From a virus: a stretch of DNA of 26,088 nt. This document shows, piece after piece, positions 4,950-16,316 of the stretch. Location: positions 1 to 26,088 of IMG/VR virus record IMGVR_UViG_3300032092_000209, one strand, 5' to 3'. Position 1 is the stretch's first letter; every line of letters starts with the position of its first letter. Both the position numbers and the translations under genes were made by a program. The notes under the pieces were generated by a model that saw only the letters and a program-made list of their open reading frames with translations, was not told where the DNA came from and did not search any database.

Positions 4950-5839
4950 TAGATCAAGCCCTCAACTTCAATGCTGCAATCAGAAATGCTTGGCGTAGAT
5001 ATTACTATATTAAAACCGCGATAAAATCCATACACGATGGTTTCAGCGCGGTCTTCATCACCAATGAAAACCGTCGGCGTTGTGCGAATGTCAGCCAGGG
5101 CCTTTTGCACAGCGGCAACGGCACCCGTTTCCACGGTAACGTCAAAATCGGCCCGCTTAGAGAATGGCCTTGTTTCGACAACCGTGTTACCAAATTCGTC
5201 CGTCTCTTTGCGGCTGTAGTCCAGAATGCTAACGCTTGTTCCGAAATTGGTCACGCCGAGGTTGCGCTGTCTGCCGATCACGACTTCGCCAATGGCTGCG
5301 GTGGCTGCCCCAGCGTTTACCTGAATCCGTATTGTCGCACCGCCATAAGCAGGCAAGCCCAAAAACACCACATCAGATACCGTTGTGATGCTCTCAAAGA
5401 AATAGCTATACCAATCAATGATGATCGTGTTGTCTTGCAGGCTTTTTGTCTCGGTGAAAACCACACCCTCAACCGGATCGGTCATTGTTATGGTAGTTGT
5501 AACGCCATTCAGATCAAACATGGCCAACGCGTTGATGATCGTTCCCGGCAATATGCTCACGTCAATCAGGCCGGTGCGGGTGGTCTGCGTGTTCACCACC
5601 TGATCGAACATCTTAAAGCGGTTGATCGCGCCAATGTCCTGCCAGCTTGGCGGCGTTAGCGTCACGCCAACCGTGGGATTGTCCGTAGTGCTGGCGACGA
5701 TGACTTTATAGAGCCGGGTGCCAAGATAGCGTTGCGTGTTGAGCGTGTAGGTGCCTGCCGTCCACAGCGTATCCGTGATGGTGACGTTGCTGGCCGTCAC
5801 CATTGCAGAAGTGACGGGGACGGGCTGGACAATAATCAT
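4949..5839 (-). CDS. Tail-tip protein (family with ending SxCSIEVEGLI)
   Basis: A 296-residue, beta-rich protein between the tape measure and the fibre, joined to both by TAATG. It starts MIIVQPVPVTSAMV and has WQDIGAINRFKMFD, then IIDWYSYFFE, GRQRNLGVTNFG, LDYSRKETDEFGN and a final CSIEVEGLI. I recognise this as a recurring phage protein type placed after tape measure genes, sometimes labelled as carrying a carbohydrate-binding domain; its biochemical role is not established from this sequence. Position suggests a distal-tail or hub component linking tube to fibre. No enzyme motif was seen. Confidence 0.6.
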   Translation of the reverse strand: MIIVQPVPVTSAMVTASNVTITDTLWTAGTYTLNTQRYLGTRLYKVIVASTTDNPTVGVTLTPPSWQDIGAINRFKMFDQVVNTQTTRTGLIDVSILPGTIINALAMFDLNGVTTTITMTDPVEGVVFTETKSLQDNTIIIDWYSYFFESITTVSDVVFLGLPAYGGATIRIQVNAGAATAAIGEVVIGRQRNLGVTNFGTSVSILDYSRKETDEFGNTVVETRPFSKRADFDVTVETGAVAAVQKALADIRTTPTVFIGDEDRAETIVYGFYRGFNIVISTPSISDCSIEVEGLI

Positions 5840-8800
5840 TAGAATCCCCTCGCGTCTGGCAGGCCGTCGCCATCCCAGCGCACAAGTTGATTGGCTGTCC
5901 GGCCGGTGTTTTTGGCGATCGCAAAAAGGCTGGCGCGCATCTCATCACGCAACGCTGCGATTTGGCTGGCCGTCGTCGCCCCGCCGCCGCTCAGGATGTC
6001 GGATGTCTGGTTTGCGTTATAGATGCGGCTAGAGCCGGTAGATTCGATTTCCGGCCCATTCTCACCGACCAAACGATAGCCGCCGCTGTGCATCCCGCCA
6101 CTGGCAAAGTCGGGCATCGGCTCGCCGCCCTCGGTTCGGAATCCGGTGCCGCCCGTCACGGTGATATTGATCGGGCGATTGCCAATGTTCTTAATAACGT
6201 CGTTGAGGTTTTTAATGGCATCCGCCACGCTCAAAACGCTTTGATCAAGCGTAATCAGCCCCTCAACACTGGCGTTAAGCGCGGCAAGCTGTTCCTGCGC
6301 GTAGGCCTCTAGCGACTTGCTTTGCTCAATAGCTACATCAACCGCCTTCATTACGTTTTCAATTTCGCGGTTATATTCTTCTGGTGTCAGGAAGCCCTTT
6401 GCCGCTTCCAGATAGTTTTGGCTCACGCCGACAAGTTGGCCAATCGCTTCCTCATTGCCAGCTATCGCCGCTGCGCTAATTTCCTGAAACTTGGCGCGGG
6501 CGGCGGTATAGATTTCTTCTGCCGTCATCAAGCTCTGTGACAGGCTATCGCGGAACGCTTGCAGATTGGCCGTCATGGCCTGGAATTTTTCAATCGTCGC
6601 GCCAATAGCAGCGGATTCTCGGTTATAGGCATCGGCCAGCGCATTTCTGGCGGTGCTGATTTTCTCCAGCACCTGAATAATTTCATCAGCGCCAAGGCCC
6701 GCAAGCTTCTCGACGATGATCTTGCTGCTTGCTTCCAGGCCCTCAAACGCGCCCTTGCCGACTGCGTTCTTGATGGCGGCTGCAACGGCCTCCTCTGCGC
6801 TGGCAAATTTCTGCACGCCCGCGCTCTTAAAGTCGCCGCCGCTCTCATTGAAAAAGAACTGTTCGCCGCTAAAGCCGATGCTACCAAGCTGCTTTCCGCT
6901 TGCCACGGTGCCACCAAGCGCGGAGGCGATCGCGCCCAATGTTTGGCTAAACTCTGTCCCAAGCGCCAGGCCCACCTGTTTGCTTTGATCGCCGCCGCGC
7001 TGATTAAAAACAGTCCCCGGCCCGGTGCCGCTCAACGTCACATCGGCGAAATTGTTTTTACTCTTAATCATCGCGCCAATTGTGCTGCCCAGCACGGAGC
7101 CAATCAATGTGCCTATCGGCCCGGCAACCGATCCAATCGCGCCGCCAATGGCACCGCCAGTTTGCGCGTTGCCTTTATTGCCGCCAAAAATGCTGGTGCC
7201 AATATTGCCAATCGTAGAGCCGATTTGAGCGCCCGCCCCAATCGCCCCCATGCTAGTCCCAAGGTTGGCCAAAACGCCGTCAATACTTTTGCCAATGCCC
7301 TCAAAAGACTTGCCCAGACTGGCGGAGAATGCAGGATATTGCTTGGTCATCAAATCGCTTAAACGGTCAACTGATGAGCCAATATTCTTGCCAAACAGAT
7401 CACCAATGCCGCCCAAAACATCGCCGAATGTTTTCAGGCTGTGCTGTATGGCATCGTCGGATTGCCTGCGCGCATCTGCCCTTGCATTGCTGCCAATGTC
7501 AGCCATTTCTTGCAGGCGCTTGCCAGCGTCCTTAAACACGTTATCGTCAAACTTGAACGACCTTTCCAGCGCCGTGATGGCCTGGCCTGTTTCTTTGGCG
7601 ATATATTCGCCAAGCGTCTGCCCAGATTTTTTGGCCGCGTCCTTTAAGGTGCGTTCGTCAAGGATCGTATCAGCGCCGGCCTTCATGCGCTCCTTGGCGG
7701 CGTCAATGATGTTGCCGCTTAGTGTATCGCCCGCCGCGCTAAAGCCTGCTTTAGCTTCGCCAAAGGCCTGCTTGATCTGGCCGGTGAACGCCTTTCCCGC
7801 CGCATCAGCCGCGCCTTTATACTTATTCTCTAGCTCTGGAATGTCCACAATCGCTTTGATTGTGTCCATGCCAAACTTCTTTAGGATGGTGTTCGTCGAT
7901 GCGATAAAGCCATTGAGGAACACTTCAATTGCCCGGCTGGCAGCGTTGACCGCTTGAATGGTCACATCACCCAATACCTTGGGCAAGTCCTTAAAGACCT
8001 GAACAATGCCACGAAAGCCGCCGACAAACGCCGCATAGATGCCAGCCGCCGCATCACTAGCCAATTCAGCCGCAAAGCTGAAAGCGGCAAAGAAACCCTT
8101 CTTGAACATATCAAAGGCTTTGTCCAAATTCAAAGCGTCCGAAATGGTCTTGCCAATTCCCTTAAACACGTCACCAATCGTAATGCCCACCGGGCCGACT
8201 TCCTTTTCTAGTTCCTTCAATTCCTTTTTGGTCAAGCCAAGGCTGCGCTGGAACTTTTCCAGTTCCCCGGTCTTGCCCACCTCCGACTGAAACGACTTGA
8301 ACGCCGCAAACGCCGTGGCCGCTGCGGCTGCAAACGCCAAGAACGCCGGATTCAGCGCAACAGCAGCCACCACGCGGCCTGTCATTGCGGCAACTTCTGC
8401 GGCAAACGCCTTAACGCTCAGGCCGCTTTGCATCATGATCTGACCGATTTGGCTGCCCTGCTGCATGAACACGGTCATCGGCTTTTGACCGCTAGTCAGA
8501 CCGACAAAAACGTCGTTCATCTGAAACGCAAGGTTCTGTGCGTGATGCCCGGCCAGCTTGCTGCTTTCACCCATGCTGCCAATGTGCGGCGTGGTAGTCG
8601 CGGCCGCCCGTTCGGCGTTGATAAGCGCCGCGCCCATGCTGCGAATTTCGCGCGCCAGTTCAGCAGTTGGAGCCGCTGCGGCGGCCATCTTGATTTCCAT
8701 GGCCTTGATTTGCAGCGATGACTTGCCGATCGTCTCAAGCTCACGATTAAGCGAATCCAGATAGCGCACCGCATCCAAAGTCGGCTTGTGGGCGGACTGC

Positions 8801-8952
8801 ATGGCCTCAGTCATGCGGTGCTGGCCAGCGATCATGGCATCAACGGCGCGGCCTGTATTGCCAGCGGCAGACGCAAGGCCCTCAAGATCGCGCTCGGCGG
8901 TCTTGGCGCTTGTGCTGTCAACCGCAATTCTAAGCGTGGCGAGTTCGGCCAT
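5839..8952 (-). CDS. Tail length tape measure protein
   Basis: At 1037 residues it is the longest gene in the window and lies just after the tail-assembly chaperones, the usual place. The N-terminus is a helical, Ala-rich coil; residues 135-175 (AQNLAFQMNDVFVGLTSGQ, then MTVFMQQGSQIGQIM) match the prophage tape-measure type domain. A hydrophobic Ala/Phe run lies near residues 190-215, and a Gly-zipper-like segment (GGAIGGAIGSVAGPIGTLIG) near 595-620 may act in membrane passage. The C-terminal FASGGMHSGGYRLVGENGPE segment is typical. It would be threaded in the tail tube lumen and set its length. By the usual rule of about 0.15 nm per residue the tail would be roughly 150 nm, an estimate only. 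Confidence 0.93.
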   Translation of the reverse strand: MAELATLRIAVDSTSAKTAERDLEGLASAAGNTGRAVDAMIAGQHRMTEAMQSAHKPTLDAVRYLDSLNRELETIGKSSLQIKAMEIKMAAAAAPTAELAREIRSMGAALINAERAAATTTPHIGSMGESSKLAGHHAQNLAFQMNDVFVGLTSGQKPMTVFMQQGSQIGQIMMQSGLSVKAFAAEVAAMTGRVVAAVALNPAFLAFAAAAATAFAAFKSFQSEVGKTGELEKFQRSLGLTKKELKELEKEVGPVGITIGDVFKGIGKTISDALNLDKAFDMFKKGFFAAFSFAAELASDAAAGIYAAFVGGFRGIVQVFKDLPKVLGDVTIQAVNAASRAIEVFLNGFIASTNTILKKFGMDTIKAIVDIPELENKYKGAADAAGKAFTGQIKQAFGEAKAGFSAAGDTLSGNIIDAAKERMKAGADTILDERTLKDAAKKSGQTLGEYIAKETGQAITALERSFKFDDNVFKDAGKRLQEMADIGSNARADARRQSDDAIQHSLKTFGDVLGGIGDLFGKNIGSSVDRLSDLMTKQYPAFSASLGKSFEGIGKSIDGVLANLGTSMGAIGAGAQIGSTIGNIGTSIFGGNKGNAQTGGAIGGAIGSVAGPIGTLIGSVLGSTIGAMIKSKNNFADVTLSGTGPGTVFNQRGGDQSKQVGLALGTEFSQTLGAIASALGGTVASGKQLGSIGFSGEQFFFNESGGDFKSAGVQKFASAEEAVAAAIKNAVGKGAFEGLEASSKIIVEKLAGLGADEIIQVLEKISTARNALADAYNRESAAIGATIEKFQAMTANLQAFRDSLSQSLMTAEEIYTAARAKFQEISAAAIAGNEEAIGQLVGVSQNYLEAAKGFLTPEEYNREIENVMKAVDVAIEQSKSLEAYAQEQLAALNASVEGLITLDQSVLSVADAIKNLNDVIKNIGNRPINITVTGGTGFRTEGGEPMPDFASGGMHSGGYRLVGENGPEIESTGSSRIYNANQTSDILSGGGATTASQIAALRDEMRASLFAIAKNTGRTANQLVRWDGDGLPDARGF

Positions 8953-8994: not shown

Positions 8995-9483
8995 CTATTT
9001 TTGCAAAGCGCCCTTGCCGCTATTCAGCTTGTCAGCCCAGGACGACATCGCCTTGCTGATTTTGTCGCGCCGATCTGCGGTCATGCGTTCCGGTGACAGA
9101 TAGAAGGGCGGGCAGGATACTTGACTGGCCTTAGACAGCGCCGAAGCATACTCATGTGATAGGCGGCGGATCGTGCCAGCCTCCCATGCCGATAGGCTGA
9201 TTCCGCGATTGGCCTTCCAAGCAGCTATCTCAAGTTCACTGATTGCCACCGGGCTACTCATAGCAAGCGGCTGGGCTGGGCCAATCTCAAACAACAAATC
9301 TATCAAATAGCCGCCAGCGGTGATGGGCGGCAGATCGCCGCCCACCGTATCACGCCTTGGCCGCTTTTCTTTTTCTGGGATCGTGTTTAGCCAAGCGATT
9401 TGCTTGACGTAAATCGCCAGCGTTTCAATCGTTTCCGCGAAAGAAGTTTGCGCGATTAGCAACAAACTCCTGCGCCTGTTCAC
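8995..9483 (-). CDS. Tail assembly chaperone T-frame, probably expressed by +1 frameshift
   Basis: A 162-codon frame overlapping the end of the upstream chaperone by 59 bases in the +1 frame. Its only early start, GTG at 9483, has no recognisable ribosome site, and a stop lies 10 codons upstream in the same frame, so translation as an extension of the G protein is more likely than independent initiation. The body contains YLIDLLFEIGPAQP and ELEIAAWKANRGISLSAWEAGTIRRL, as in C-terminal T domains of siphovirus G-T chaperones, which bind the tape measure during tube assembly. Slippage at TTT-C near 9440 would give a fusion of about 277 residues. Tail position directly before the tape measure supports the call. 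Confidence 0.75.
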   Translation of the reverse strand: MNRRRSLLLIAQTSFAETIETLAIYVKQIAWLNTIPEKEKRPRRDTVGGDLPPITAGGYLIDLLFEIGPAQPLAMSSPVAISELEIAAWKANRGISLSAWEAGTIRRLSHEYASALSKASQVSCPPFYLSPERMTADRRDKISKAMSSWADKLNSGKGALQK

Positions 9484-9829
9484 GAATCCACGGCCAATCG
9501 GTGTAGACCGTCACCGCGTTAGCCTTTTCGCACTTAAGCGCCTTGCCATCCAACTCAAAGCCGCTCCATTTGACCGTCATCTTGGCCAGATCGTCAATCA
9601 TCTCAGCCGCCAGCTTTTCGGCGTCCAGATCGGCAGTTATCCGCTTGCCCTTGGAAAGACGGTTCAATGCCATTTGCTGCTTTGCCATCTGGATTTTACG
9701 ATAGGCGGCGCTGTCCTGGCCCAGAAGCGTGATGGTCATCCCATCTAGCGGCTCCTCAGTCTGTGGATGCACTAGCTGTAGCGTAGCGCCTTCGTCCGCC
9801 TTTACGGCCCTTAGCGTGTCCAAGTCCAT
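9425..9829 (-). CDS. Tail assembly chaperone G
   Basis: A 134-residue protein placed between tail tube and tape measure. The start ATG has AAAGGG six bases upstream. Features include LQLVHPQTEEPLDGMTITLLGQDSAAYRK near the N-terminus, a central LAAEMIDDLAKMTVKWSGFELDG segment and a C-terminal DWPWIREQAQEFV..RANFFRGND, a layout common in siphovirus G-type chaperones. In lambda the equivalent protein coats the tape measure together with its frameshifted G-T form and is absent from the finished tail. Here the 3' end overlaps the T frame. It lies after a 93-base gap that holds a stem-loop, which may lower its level relative to the tube protein. Confidence 0.78.
   Translation of the reverse strand: MDLDTLRAVKADEGATLQLVHPQTEEPLDGMTITLLGQDSAAYRKIQMAKQQMALNRLSKGKRITADLDAEKLAAEMIDDLAKMTVKWSGFELDGKALKCEKANAVTVYTDWPWIREQAQEFVANRANFFRGND
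9437..9445 (-). other. Candidate +1 ribosomal frameshift site (TTC TTT CGC)
   Basis: Within the overlap of the two chaperone frames the G frame reads TTC TTT CGC GGA AAC GAT TGA. A Phe tRNA on TTT could re-pair with TTC after a one-base forward slip, after which the T frame continues GCG GAA ACG ATT. The slip lies four sense codons before the G stop. The frame difference is +1 (equivalently -2), not the -1 seen in phage lambda. No downstream pseudoknot was worked out. Confidence 0.45.
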
Positions 9830-9857
9830 GGTTGCCCTTTCATGTCAGCCCAAGAAT

Positions 9858-9911
9858 GCCAGCGGCAGGCGGCGGGCGATCCGCTTTTCGGGTGCTACCC
9901 TAGCCGCTGGC
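9858..9911 (-). other. Stem-loop after the tail tube gene
   Basis: GCCAGCGGC (9858-9866) is an exact inverted repeat of GCCGCTGGC (9903-9911), nine pairs with a 36-base GC-rich loop. In the leftward transcript the stem begins 11 bases after the tail tube stop codon. There is no U run, so it is not a classical intrinsic terminator. It may protect the upstream mRNA end or reduce read-through into the chaperones. Confidence 0.35.
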
Positions 9912-9922
9912 GTCTGGCGATG

Positions 9923-10384
9923 TTACGGGGCTACAACCTTGACAACCTTGTTGTCGATTTCAAGCGTCACTTCGGCCATCGTGATGGCGTCAGCGTTGCC
10001 AACATTCACCTTGTAGCTCATCACCTGAGCGGTGAAATACTGGATTTCACCGTTCACCAGCAACACCTTGACCGCAACCTGTGCGTCGGTGCCAGCAGCC
10101 GCTTCGGCGGCGTCCTGCAACACCGTTTGGCCAGCATCGTCATCTGACACGGCCATCGTCAAAGCAACGGAGCCAAAATTCAGCGAACCACGGCGCTTGG
10201 CGACGATGCCGGTTGACAGCGGCGTATGCGTGGCAAGCGCGGCTTCTGCGCCGAAGGCGGGCAGTTCTGCAAGCTCGCCGCAAGCGATCCAAGTCAGTGC
10301 GGCAAAGCCGGCTGCGTTGTATGTGGCGGGCGATGCGTTGGCAACCGATACGATCGTGCCAACTGAAGAAACTACGTCAGACAT
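9923..10384 (-). CDS. Major tail tube protein
   Basis: A 153-residue protein with the marks of lambda gpV-like tube subunits: an N-terminal ATYNAAGFAALTWIACGEL segment, a GIVAKRRGSLNFGS loop, an acidic MAVSDDDAGQTVL stretch and a beta-rich C-terminal half including GEIQYFTAQVMSYKVNVG. It would polymerise into hexameric rings forming the tail tube around the tape measure. The gene has a full AGGAGG ribosome site eight bases before ATG, one of the best in the window, as expected for an abundant structural protein. It follows the tail completion gene and precedes the chaperones, the normal order. Confidence 0.85.
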   Translation of the reverse strand: MSDVVSSVGTIVSVANASPATYNAAGFAALTWIACGELAELPAFGAEAALATHTPLSTGIVAKRRGSLNFGSVALTMAVSDDDAGQTVLQDAAEAAAGTDAQVAVKVLLVNGEIQYFTAQVMSYKVNVGNADAITMAEVTLEIDNKVVKVVAP

Positions 10385-14256: not shown

Positions 14257-15282
14257 TTAGCCGTATTTCTCACGCAATTCCCGCAGCGTTAGCGGGACGC
14301 CTTGCGCGTTTAGCAAGTCTTGCAAAGTGATCTTGCCATCACGCCAAAGCTGGGCGCGGCCCTTGCCTAGCATCTCATCGGCAAACTCTACTGGCTTGCC
14401 TTTCAGCCAATCGCCAAAAGTCAGATCGGCGGCCACTTGCCCATCCATGCTGGCGCGAGTGGATGCCGGCACTTCGTCAATGTCTAGGCCAAGTTCACGA
14501 AATGTTTTGGTGATCGGGATGATGGTGGATCGGCAAGCCCAATGCGCGGGCGGCGGCCCTTGCCACTCAATGTTGTGGCCCTGCGGCTTATAGCCGGGCA
14601 GCGTCCAAACAAGGCCGGATCGCGCAATGCAAATATCACTGGTGCGGCTGTCTAGGGTGCTAATCCACTGCACCGCCTTGATCACGTTGGTGTTGGCCTC
14701 AAACGTGGCAAGCCGGGCATCATTGGCCACCGTCTGCACCGCCGTTCGGGTGACTGCCATAACGTCACGTCGGCCACGCGGAAACGCTTCTGGCCCGCGC
14801 ATTCCGTCGCCAACAATTGATCGGGCAATCTGTTCATTGGTGTCGCCCAGCACCACGCCCGTTTTGACGGCCCGCTCAATGTCAAAAGCGATTTGGTCAC
14901 GGATGCGGCGGAACCATTGGCCTGTCGTTGCACCTTGCACCAGACTTGTGCTGGCAATCCGGTCAATCACAGACGCGCCAGGCAGCACGGCATCAATGGA
15001 AATGGTGGCAAACGCCTGCCGGGCAAACGCCGCCTCTAGCGCCGCTAAGTCACCTAAATTCGGTTGCGTGATCTTCACCACCTTCTGCAAGTCAGCGATG
15101 GCGCGATCCAGCCGCTTGCCCTGAAAGCTAGTCAGAGGCTTGCCGTTTTTGATCCGCTTTTCAATCTCGCGTGACACCTCAAGCAACTGGCGATTCAGCC
15201 GTGCCTGTTCACCAGCCGCAAGCCTGTTTAGGATTAGCTGGCGGATCGTATATAGATCGGCCAAGCGGTCGGCGGCGTTCAC
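14257..15282 (-). CDS. Minor head protein, phage Mu F / SPP1 gp7-like
   Basis: A 341-residue protein after the collagen-like gene, GTG start in a GTGA overlap. The C-terminal half has the head morphogenesis signature: RTAVQTVANDARLATFEAN, then VQWISTLDSRTSDICIARSGLVW, PPPAHWACRSTIIPI. Cys and His residues in this block are the conserved core of the MuF-like domain. The N-terminal part is long helices with many charged residues. Proteins of this group are minor capsid components associated with the portal and, in some phages, enter the host with DNA. Position after portal and before scaffold fits. No toxin domain is fused. Confidence 0.85.
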   Translation of the reverse strand: MNAADRLADLYTIRQLILNRLAAGEQARLNRQLLEVSREIEKRIKNGKPLTSFQGKRLDRAIADLQKVVKITQPNLGDLAALEAAFARQAFATISIDAVLPGASVIDRIASTSLVQGATTGQWFRRIRDQIAFDIERAVKTGVVLGDTNEQIARSIVGDGMRGPEAFPRGRRDVMAVTRTAVQTVANDARLATFEANTNVIKAVQWISTLDSRTSDICIARSGLVWTLPGYKPQGHNIEWQGPPPAHWACRSTIIPITKTFRELGLDIDEVPASTRASMDGQVAADLTFGDWLKGKPVEFADEMLGKGRAQLWRDGKITLQDLLNAQGVPLTLRELREKYG

Positions 15283-16316
15283 GGTGCCACCCGATTAACA
15301 GTCAAGATGATTGATGGCGTGGCAGGGCGCACCGGATTAATGCGCGCCGGTGTCGCGCCAAGCGTCACGTTTGCGCTACTGGCAGACCACATCAGCCGGA
15401 AATATTCGCCTGCACTGACACGGTAAAAGAAATTCCATGCCGCAACCGCTGCGCCGTCAACGGAGCCATGCCTTGCCGGCACCGTAATGTCAGTGCAGCT
15501 ATCAGGCTCCGCTGTGCCGTTACGCATCAGCCAAATGCTTACATTATGATCTTGGCTTTGGCTGTTGACCAACTGGGCGCTGAATTGGATATTGTAAATC
15601 CCAGGCTGTGAAAACGTCACCTTCACGTCATCGGTGATCGTAATGCGAACGCCTTCAACGACATTCTCGAATCGCATCGGCGCGGCCACGTTTGGCGCTT
15701 CGGTTTGCGTTGTGCTGCTATAAGCCGACAGATAGGCCGGCAAGTCTTTGCCACCGCCGCCCGTTATGATTTGCGTGGCAGCCTTGGGCAGTTCAATCTC
15801 GAACTCGCGGCCATCGTCTAGCGTGATCCAGAACGATCCTTCGTCACGCTGTTCCACCAGCGCAATGCCAATTCCCTGACTGCCAGTAGCGCCAACAGGG
15901 CCAGCAGGGCCAGGCCTACCATCAGCACCATCACGGCCATCAGCGCCGTCACTGCCACTGCGGCCATCAGTTCCACGCAATCCCGCGCGGTTTGCTTCCA
16001 TCCAGATAGAGACGGCAAGTTCGATCTCCTGTTCTGTTGGCGGGCGTCCTTGCGGCCCTTGTGGGCCAATGTCACCTTGCGGCCCTTGCGGGCCTTCTGC
16101 GCCGGGCTGGCCATCGGCTGGCTGTGCGATGTTGGCCGACAGCCAAGCCGTAGCGGCATCGCGGATCGCCTCATCGGTTGGCGGCGGGCCAGGCTCGCCA
16201 TTGGCACCGGCCGGGCCGATCGGGCCAGCGATCAACTCAAAGCTGCCTAGATCATTAACGCGCCGATTAAGCGCGGCAACAGCCTCGACCAAACTCGTGA
16301 TGATTTCCGGTTCCAT
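15279..16316 (-). CDS. Collagen-like fibre protein with C-terminal C1q/TNF-like domain
   Basis: A 345-residue protein. A short N-terminal helix is followed by three Gly-X-Y blocks (about 31-45, 68-91, 111-148) separated by two similar helical inserts, PPTDEAIRDAATAWLSANIA and PPTEQEIELAVSIWMEANRA, which look like an internal duplication. A linker then leads to a beta-rich C-terminal domain (about 200-345: GVRITITDDVKVTFSQPGIY, VSIWLMRNGT, AAWNFFYRVSAGEYFRLMW, PSIILTVNRV) with the strand pattern of C1q/TNF-type jelly rolls. It should trimerise. Located between portal and minor head genes with TAATG and GTGA junctions, it is likely a head or neck fibre or decoration protein that binds surfaces. 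Confidence 0.75.
   Translation of the reverse strand: MEPEIITSLVEAVAALNRRVNDLGSFELIAGPIGPAGANGEPGPPPTDEAIRDAATAWLSANIAQPADGQPGAEGPQGPQGDIGPQGPQGRPPTEQEIELAVSIWMEANRAGLRGTDGRSGSDGADGRDGADGRPGPAGPVGATGSQGIGIALVEQRDEGSFWITLDDGREFEIELPKAATQIITGGGGKDLPAYLSAYSSTTQTEAPNVAAPMRFENVVEGVRITITDDVKVTFSQPGIYNIQFSAQLVNSQSQDHNVSIWLMRNGTAEPDSCTDITVPARHGSVDGAAVAAWNFFYRVSAGEYFRLMWSASSANVTLGATPARINPVRPATPSIILTVNRVAP

What the first reader, a model, noticed from the sequence alone, without database searches (positions are those of the whole stretch)
9425..9515. Probable +1 (not -1) programmed frameshift joining tail chaperones G and T
The T frame overlaps the end of G by 59 bases in the +1/-2 frame, opens only after a TGA about 27 bases upstream of its GTG, and lacks a ribosome site. 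TTC TTT C four codons before the G stop allows Phe-tRNA re-pairing after a +1 slip. Most described siphovirus tail chaperones use -1; the other direction is less common. A 277-residue fusion is predicted.
Basis: partly seen in the sequence, partly recalled or inferred. Interest (0 to 1): 0.6.

Follow-up and report, generated by a model that had tools for sequence, protein, structure and literature searches.

The report
Phage tail-chaperone +1 ribosomal frameshift
In this phage some ribosomes very probably slip forward by one base at UUU_C near the end of a tail-assembly gene and so make a longer fused protein; relatives as close as about 70% identical slip backward instead, which makes the family a clean case of a frameshift that changed direction in evolution.

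Summary
The G ORF (9829-9425, minus strand) and the T ORF sit between the major tail protein and tape-measure genes. T is in the +1 frame, with no usable start conserved among relatives, and a +1 slip on TTT_C (9442-9439) gives a 277-residue GT fusion. I tested this on 191 distinct related overlaps. T is in the +1 frame in 104, forming two clades, and in the -1 frame in 87. All 104 carry UUU_Y at the junction: UUU_C in 101, of which 90 are UUU_CGN, and UUU_U in 3. In the window clade the site Phe codon is TTT in 68/68. It is the only conserved two-fold codon with no synonymous change (mean 7.4). In 42 of the 104, no ATG/GTG/TTG exists in the T frame upstream of the site. Canonical -1 heptamers occur in 0/104 of the +1 overlaps and 38/87 of the -1 overlaps. 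T is under purifying selection. UUU_Y is a documented bacterial +1 site, and UUU_CGN is the +1 motif of influenza PA-X. Tail chaperones using -1, -2 or +1 are already known. What looks new is a large UUU_C family whose direction switched between relatives about 70% identical. No frameshifting was measured, and no stimulator was found.

The parts
9425..9829 (-). G: tail assembly chaperone, 134 aa (zero-frame product)
   Evidence: phrog_313 'Tail assembly chaperone' E=2e-11; AlphaFold model pLDDT 88 matches predicted structures of named tape-measure/tail assembly chaperones, e.g. Caulobacter phage Sansa E=6e-6, Escherichia phage Seurat, Xanthomonas phage Suba; lies between the tail tube and tape-measure genes
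8995..9510 (-). T: open frame in +1 relative to G (stop to stop); the part used is downstream of the shift site, 9438-8998, with stop 8997-8995
   Evidence: homologous to the -1-frame T of Acinetobacter phage Effie by tblastn E=5e-9; dN/dS 0.05-0.15 among window-clade pairs
9439..9445 (-). Shift site TTC_TTT_C; P-site TTT 9442-9440, the skipped C is 9439, zero-frame A-site codon CGC 9439-9437
   Evidence: TTT 68/68 and C 68/68 in the window clade; zero synonymous changes against a mean of 7.4
8998..9829 (-). Predicted GT fusion, 277 residues, junction ...ANFF/AETIETLAIYVK...
   Evidence: translation with TTTC read as one Phe; the fusion of the homologous L072 matches phrog_313 continuously over residues 9-253
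9460..9483 (-). Possible but unconserved T-frame start codons: GTG 9483, TTG 9465, TTG 9462, with SD-like AGGAG at 9471-9467
   Evidence: lost or stopped out in relatives
9923..10384 (-). Major tail (tube) protein, upstream gene
   Evidence: phrog_158 E=2e-15
5839..8952 (-). Tape-measure protein, downstream gene
   Evidence: Pfam TMP_2 E=5e-16, phrog_19487

Best explanation
A minority of ribosomes translating G pause with tRNA-Phe (anticodon GAA) in the P site on UUU (9442-9440). The tRNA re-pairs one base forward on UUC, and translation continues in the T frame with GCG. This yields a small amount of a 277-residue GT fusion besides the 134-residue G. By analogy with lambda gpG/gpGT, G coats the tape-measure protein and the T domain of GT recruits the tail tube protein. 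Shown here by sequence comparison: frame relation, site, direction, conservation and purifying selection on T. Inferred: that slippage occurs, how often, and the role in tail assembly.
For: UUU_Y at the junction in 104/104 distinct +1 overlaps: UUU_C 101, UUU_U 3. The site TTT never varies in 68 window-clade and 36 Curvibacter/Limnohabitans-clade sequences, although the neighbouring Phe codon changed 5 times and other two-fold codons 7.4 times on average in the window clade. The T frame is closed by a stop 5-8 bases before the end of TTT in 33 of 36 of the second clade. No ATG/GTG/TTG exists upstream in 42/104, usually with none for a further 90 bases downstream. The site stays put when the G stop moves to 3, 9, 12, 21 or 51 bases downstream. 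Zero of 104 hold a canonical -1 heptamer, against 38/87 of the -1 relatives. T dN/dS is 0.05-0.29. UUU_Ynn is reported as especially prone to +1 frameshifting in bacteria (PMC5009743).
Against: No protein or reporter data. No stimulator found: no conserved structure within 107 columns (6 pairs, none compensatory), no conserved SD-like element at RF2-type spacing, and the A-site codon CGC is the commonest Arg codon of this phage. In 62 of 68 window-clade members some T-frame start codon does exist upstream, so independent initiation is not excluded for the window by itself.
Confidence: 0.93

Rival explanations
1. T is a separate protein initiated inside G, at GTG 9483 or at TTG 9465/9462 behind AGGAG, by internal initiation or translational coupling.
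For: AGGAG lies 4 bases before TTG 9462, and a T-frame TTG at -26 or -23 occurs in 52 of 68 window-clade members.
Against: The GTG is lost in L002 and L007. A T-frame stop with no later start upstream of the site occurs in L016, L025, L026, L056, L098 and L156 and in all 36 of the second clade. The TTG and AGGAG follow from coding of Q-E-F-V in G. It does not explain the frozen TTT.
Confidence: 0.04
2. A -2 frameshift, as in phage Mu, reaches the same frame and adds one residue.
For: In 36 of 68 window-clade members TTT is preceded by TTT, so a -2 re-pairing of that tRNA would be possible.
Against: In the window and 31 others the tRNA would face UCU, and in the second clade ACU, AUU or CCU. 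Only +1 re-pairing is possible in all 104.
Confidence: 0.02
3. Transcriptional slippage, sequencing error or a decayed gene.
For: The two reading frames are simply out of register.
Against: No homopolymer longer than three bases at the window site. The arrangement recurs in 104 distinct overlaps. T is under purifying selection.
Confidence: 0.01

Closest known systems
Lambda gpG/gpGT -1 programmed frameshift (tail assembly chaperones)
   Same: Gene order tail tube, G, T overlap, tape measure; short abundant G and rarer GT fusion
   Different: +1 at UUU_C instead of -1 on a slippery heptamer; the shift site is close to the G stop
phrog_313 tail assembly chaperones with -1 shift (Acinetobacter phage Effie, phage 438212, Roseobacter phage CRP-6)
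   Same: Orthologous G and T; shift at the homologous R-A-N-F place
   Different: T in the -1 frame, often with A_AAU_UUY, U_UUU_UUU or related sites
UUU_CGN +1 sites of eukaryotic viruses (influenza A PA-X UCC_UUU_CGU, amalgaviruses, fijiviruses, chronic bee paralysis virus; PMC3498833)
   Same: UUU_C P-site re-pairing followed by CGN; no evident stimulator
   Different: Bacterial phage and ribosome; E-site codon is UUY or AAY, not UCC; CAC, CAA and UGU also occur at the A site
Bacterial UUU_Y +1 sites (Yersinia YopN-TyeA, as reviewed in PMC5009743)
   Same: UUU_Y without an adjacent stop codon, bacterial ribosome
   Different: There not a phage tail gene; here conserved over 104 overlaps
HSTV-2 tail chaperone (archaeal virus, very likely +1; PMC5009743) and phage Mu (-2)
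   Same: Tail chaperone fusion reached through the +1 frame
   Different: Different families; the HSTV-2 site could not be read here (paper not held)
Bacterial prfB +1 frameshift (CUU_UGA_C with SD stimulator)
   Same: +1 P-site slip

Membership tests
Phage tail assembly chaperone (G/GT) | Sequence membership of G in a tail assembly chaperone family | tested here: met
   phrog_313 E=2e-11
Phage tail assembly chaperone (G/GT) | Position between the tail tube and tape-measure genes | tested here: met
   phrog_158 upstream, TMP_2 downstream
Phage tail assembly chaperone (G/GT) | Predicted fold like annotated chaperones | tested here: met
   BFVD hits to named tape-measure/tail chaperones, E 6e-6 to 7e-4; no PDB match
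Phage tail assembly chaperone (G/GT) | C-terminal extension joined by a frameshift to one fused protein | tested here: met
   By comparison only: fused L072 aligns over most of phrog_313; T conserved in the other frame
Phage tail assembly chaperone (G/GT) | Fusion protein made in infection and needed for tails | not testable with these tools
   Needs proteomics or genetics
-1 X_XXY_YYZ programmed frameshift | T in the -1 frame and a canonical heptamer | tested here: not met
   T in the +1 frame; 0/104 heptamers
UUU_Y +1 programmed frameshift | UUU followed by Y at the junction, conserved beyond coding need | tested here: met
   104/104; zero synonymous changes
UUU_Y +1 programmed frameshift | Measured +1 product | not testable with these tools
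   Needs a reporter or mass spectrometry
UUU_CGN class of eukaryotic viruses | A-site CGN | tested here: met
   CGC in the window; 90/104 in the family
UUU_CGN class of eukaryotic viruses | UCC in the E site (PA-X) | tested here: not met
   TTC or TTT in the window clade, AAY mostly in the other
[quoted passage not shown]
   A-site CGC; nearest AGGAG about 24 bases upstream and not conserved

The most novel reading that the evidence does not exclude
UUU_CGN is a general minimal +1 frameshift cassette shared by bacterial and eukaryotic ribosomes, gained at least twice in these phages, and the CGN codon in the A site helps the slip. The frame of T flipped between -1 and +1 several times by exchanging one slippery site for the other within a few bases.
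Probability: 0.35. Interest if true: 0.65.

Novelty: new variant of a known kind. Interest (0 to 1): 0.52.

Why it matters
Frameshift direction is usually taken as fixed among orthologues of a programmed gene (PMC3711429). Reviews list -1, -2 and +1 among tail chaperones of different phages (PMC5009743), but I found no paper describing a UUU_C tail-chaperone family, nor close relatives that differ in sign. This family gives matched natural pairs about 70% identical in G, one reading -1 on A_AAU_UUU and one +1 on UUU_Y, so how such a switch can happen without losing the G:GT ratio becomes directly testable. It also gives a bacterial counterpart of the influenza PA-X site. For annotation, the fusion is missing from the public records inspected.

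Tried and rejected
Downstream RNA structure: some relatives fold strongly (z to -6 with a simple shuffle) but nothing is shared, so it is not claimed. SD-like stimulator AGGAG: too far away and not conserved. Rare A-site codon: CGC is common in this phage. Genome collection: two scans found no prophage relative of the window clade, so the host is unknown. PDB search of the G model gave nothing meaningful. The HSTV-2 genome paper is not held. Papers on +1 tail chaperones with UUUC: only the Atkins review and the PA-X paper turned up.

Full report
What is there. The genes are on the minus strand, in the order major tail protein (10384-9923), G (9829-9425), T, tape-measure protein (8952-5839). 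G is a phrog_313 tail assembly chaperone (E=2e-11). Its AlphaFold model (pLDDT 88) matches predicted structures of named tape-measure or tail assembly chaperones in BFVD. T is in the +1 frame. It opens after TGA 9513-9511, has GTG at 9483, overlaps G by 59 bases from that GTG, and ends at 8995. Reading TTTC at 9442-9439 as one Phe gives a 277-residue fusion.

Close relatives. Eighteen IMG/VR loci with G 75-95% identical all keep G at 134 codons and T in +1, with TTC TTT C unchanged. The GTG is GGG in L002 and L007. L016 and L017 have a T-frame TAG that leaves no start upstream of the site. So the GTG and the TTG codons are not needed.

Wide comparison. Further scans with G and T queries and phage records gave 286 loci. 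These were reduced to 191 distinct 500-base contexts with both G and T recognised by profile. T lies in +1 in 104 and in -1 in 87. None has G and T in one frame. The +1 cases form a window clade (68) and a Curvibacter/Limnohabitans clade (36). At the junction, 101 have TTT_C (CGC 67, CGA 21, CGT 2, CAC 6, CAA 5) and 3 have TTT_TGT. All therefore fit UUU_Y, which the Atkins review describes as especially prone to +1 frameshifting in bacteria without an adjacent stop codon (PMC5009743).

Is the site conserved beyond coding? On a nucleotide tree of the 68 window-clade G genes, 25 conserved two-fold codons show on average 7.4 synonymous changes. The site Phe codon shows none and is the only such codon. 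The Phe codon beside it shows 5, and the other two conserved Phe codons 4 and 12. In the second clade the site is TTT in 36/36, with two other two-fold codons also unchanged. Under the frameshift model the third T is not read twice, so protein constraint does not explain this. Under separate T initiation it could, but that model fails where the frame is closed.

Localisation. In 33 of 36 second-clade members the T frame is closed by a stop 5-8 bases before the end of TTT, so the shift must happen on the last few codons of G, and TTT_Y is the only conserved one that re-pairs. In the window clade the site keeps its place while the G stop lies 3, 12, 21 or 51 bases downstream, so the stop codon is not part of the signal. 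A -2 slip would put the Phe tRNA on UCU, ACU, AUU or CCU in 68 of 104. Transcriptional slippage lacks a homopolymer in the window.

Purifying selection. dN/dS of T downstream of the site is 0.05-0.15 in window-clade pairs and 0.09-0.29 in the second clade. The fused L072 protein matches phrog_313 over residues 9-253 of 263, as one continuous protein.

Change of direction. The -1 relatives have T homologous to that of the +1 forms (Effie T, tblastn E=5e-9) and shift at the homologous place. There 38 of 87 hold a canonical heptamer (A_AAU_UUC, A_AAU_UUU, U_UUU_UUU and others), against 0 of 104 in the +1 set. In the window clade the combinations GCA AAT TTY and AAT TTT TTT, which would make -1 heptamers, do not occur. 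L197, L198, L199 and L201 (-1, A_AAT_TTT) have G about 68-74% identical, over the 65 residues compared, to +1 members L196, L200, L202 and L022. A tree of 67 G proteins needs at least 4 changes of sign, of which well-supported branches force 2. Long branches make the exact count unsure. The counts of sequences are not counts of independent events.

Mechanism and its gaps. The best reading is P-site slippage of tRNA-Phe from UUU to UUC. No stimulator was found: no conserved downstream structure, no SD at RF2-type spacing, and no rare A-site codon. The Open Biology paper on influenza PA-X (PMC3498833) reports the same UUU_CGN preference and likewise no clear cause, at about 1% efficiency. The lambda-like role of G and GT is inferred from homology and gene order.

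Known or new. That tail chaperones use -1, -2 or +1 in different phages is known (PMC5009743). I found no description of a UUU_C tail-chaperone family or of a switch of direction between such close relatives, but the library is incomplete. GeneTack authors state that direction is conserved among orthologues of programmed frameshift genes (PMC3711429). The review mentions a fungal case, a Rab-GDI displacement factor, with both directions.

Noticed in passing
window 9848-9910 (-): Rfam int-alpA RNA (RF02996, 50.1 bits, gathering 35.8) lies between the major tail protein gene and G. It is found in the same place in L003, L009 and L014 but not in the 11 more distant window-clade relatives scanned. 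An odd place for a motif named after integrase-alpA.
   Followed up: partly
L197-L199, L201 versus L196, L200, L202: Relatives about 70% identical in G differ in the frame of T: -1 on A_AAT_TTT versus +1 on TTT_TGT.
   Followed up: yes
L205, L206: Probable -1 shift on A_AAA_AAA in a relative 46% identical in G to the Limnohabitans group; T is cut off by the contig end.
   Followed up: partly
L072, L022, L020: Public records of Limnohabitans phage DC31, Curvibacter phage P26059A and Acinetobacter phage Effie carry no fusion; T is missing or annotated from a late start.
   Followed up: partly
window 15279-16316 (-): ORF of 345 aa with collagen-like G-X-Y repeats among the structural genes.
   Followed up: no
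L023 3240-3866: Homing endonuclease gene between T and the tape-measure gene in Rhizobium phage RHph_X2_24.
   Followed up: no
L058, L066, L099: Hairpin TCCCGTC..GACGGGA about 60 bases downstream of the shift site in one branch of the window clade; not shared by the window.
   Followed up: partly
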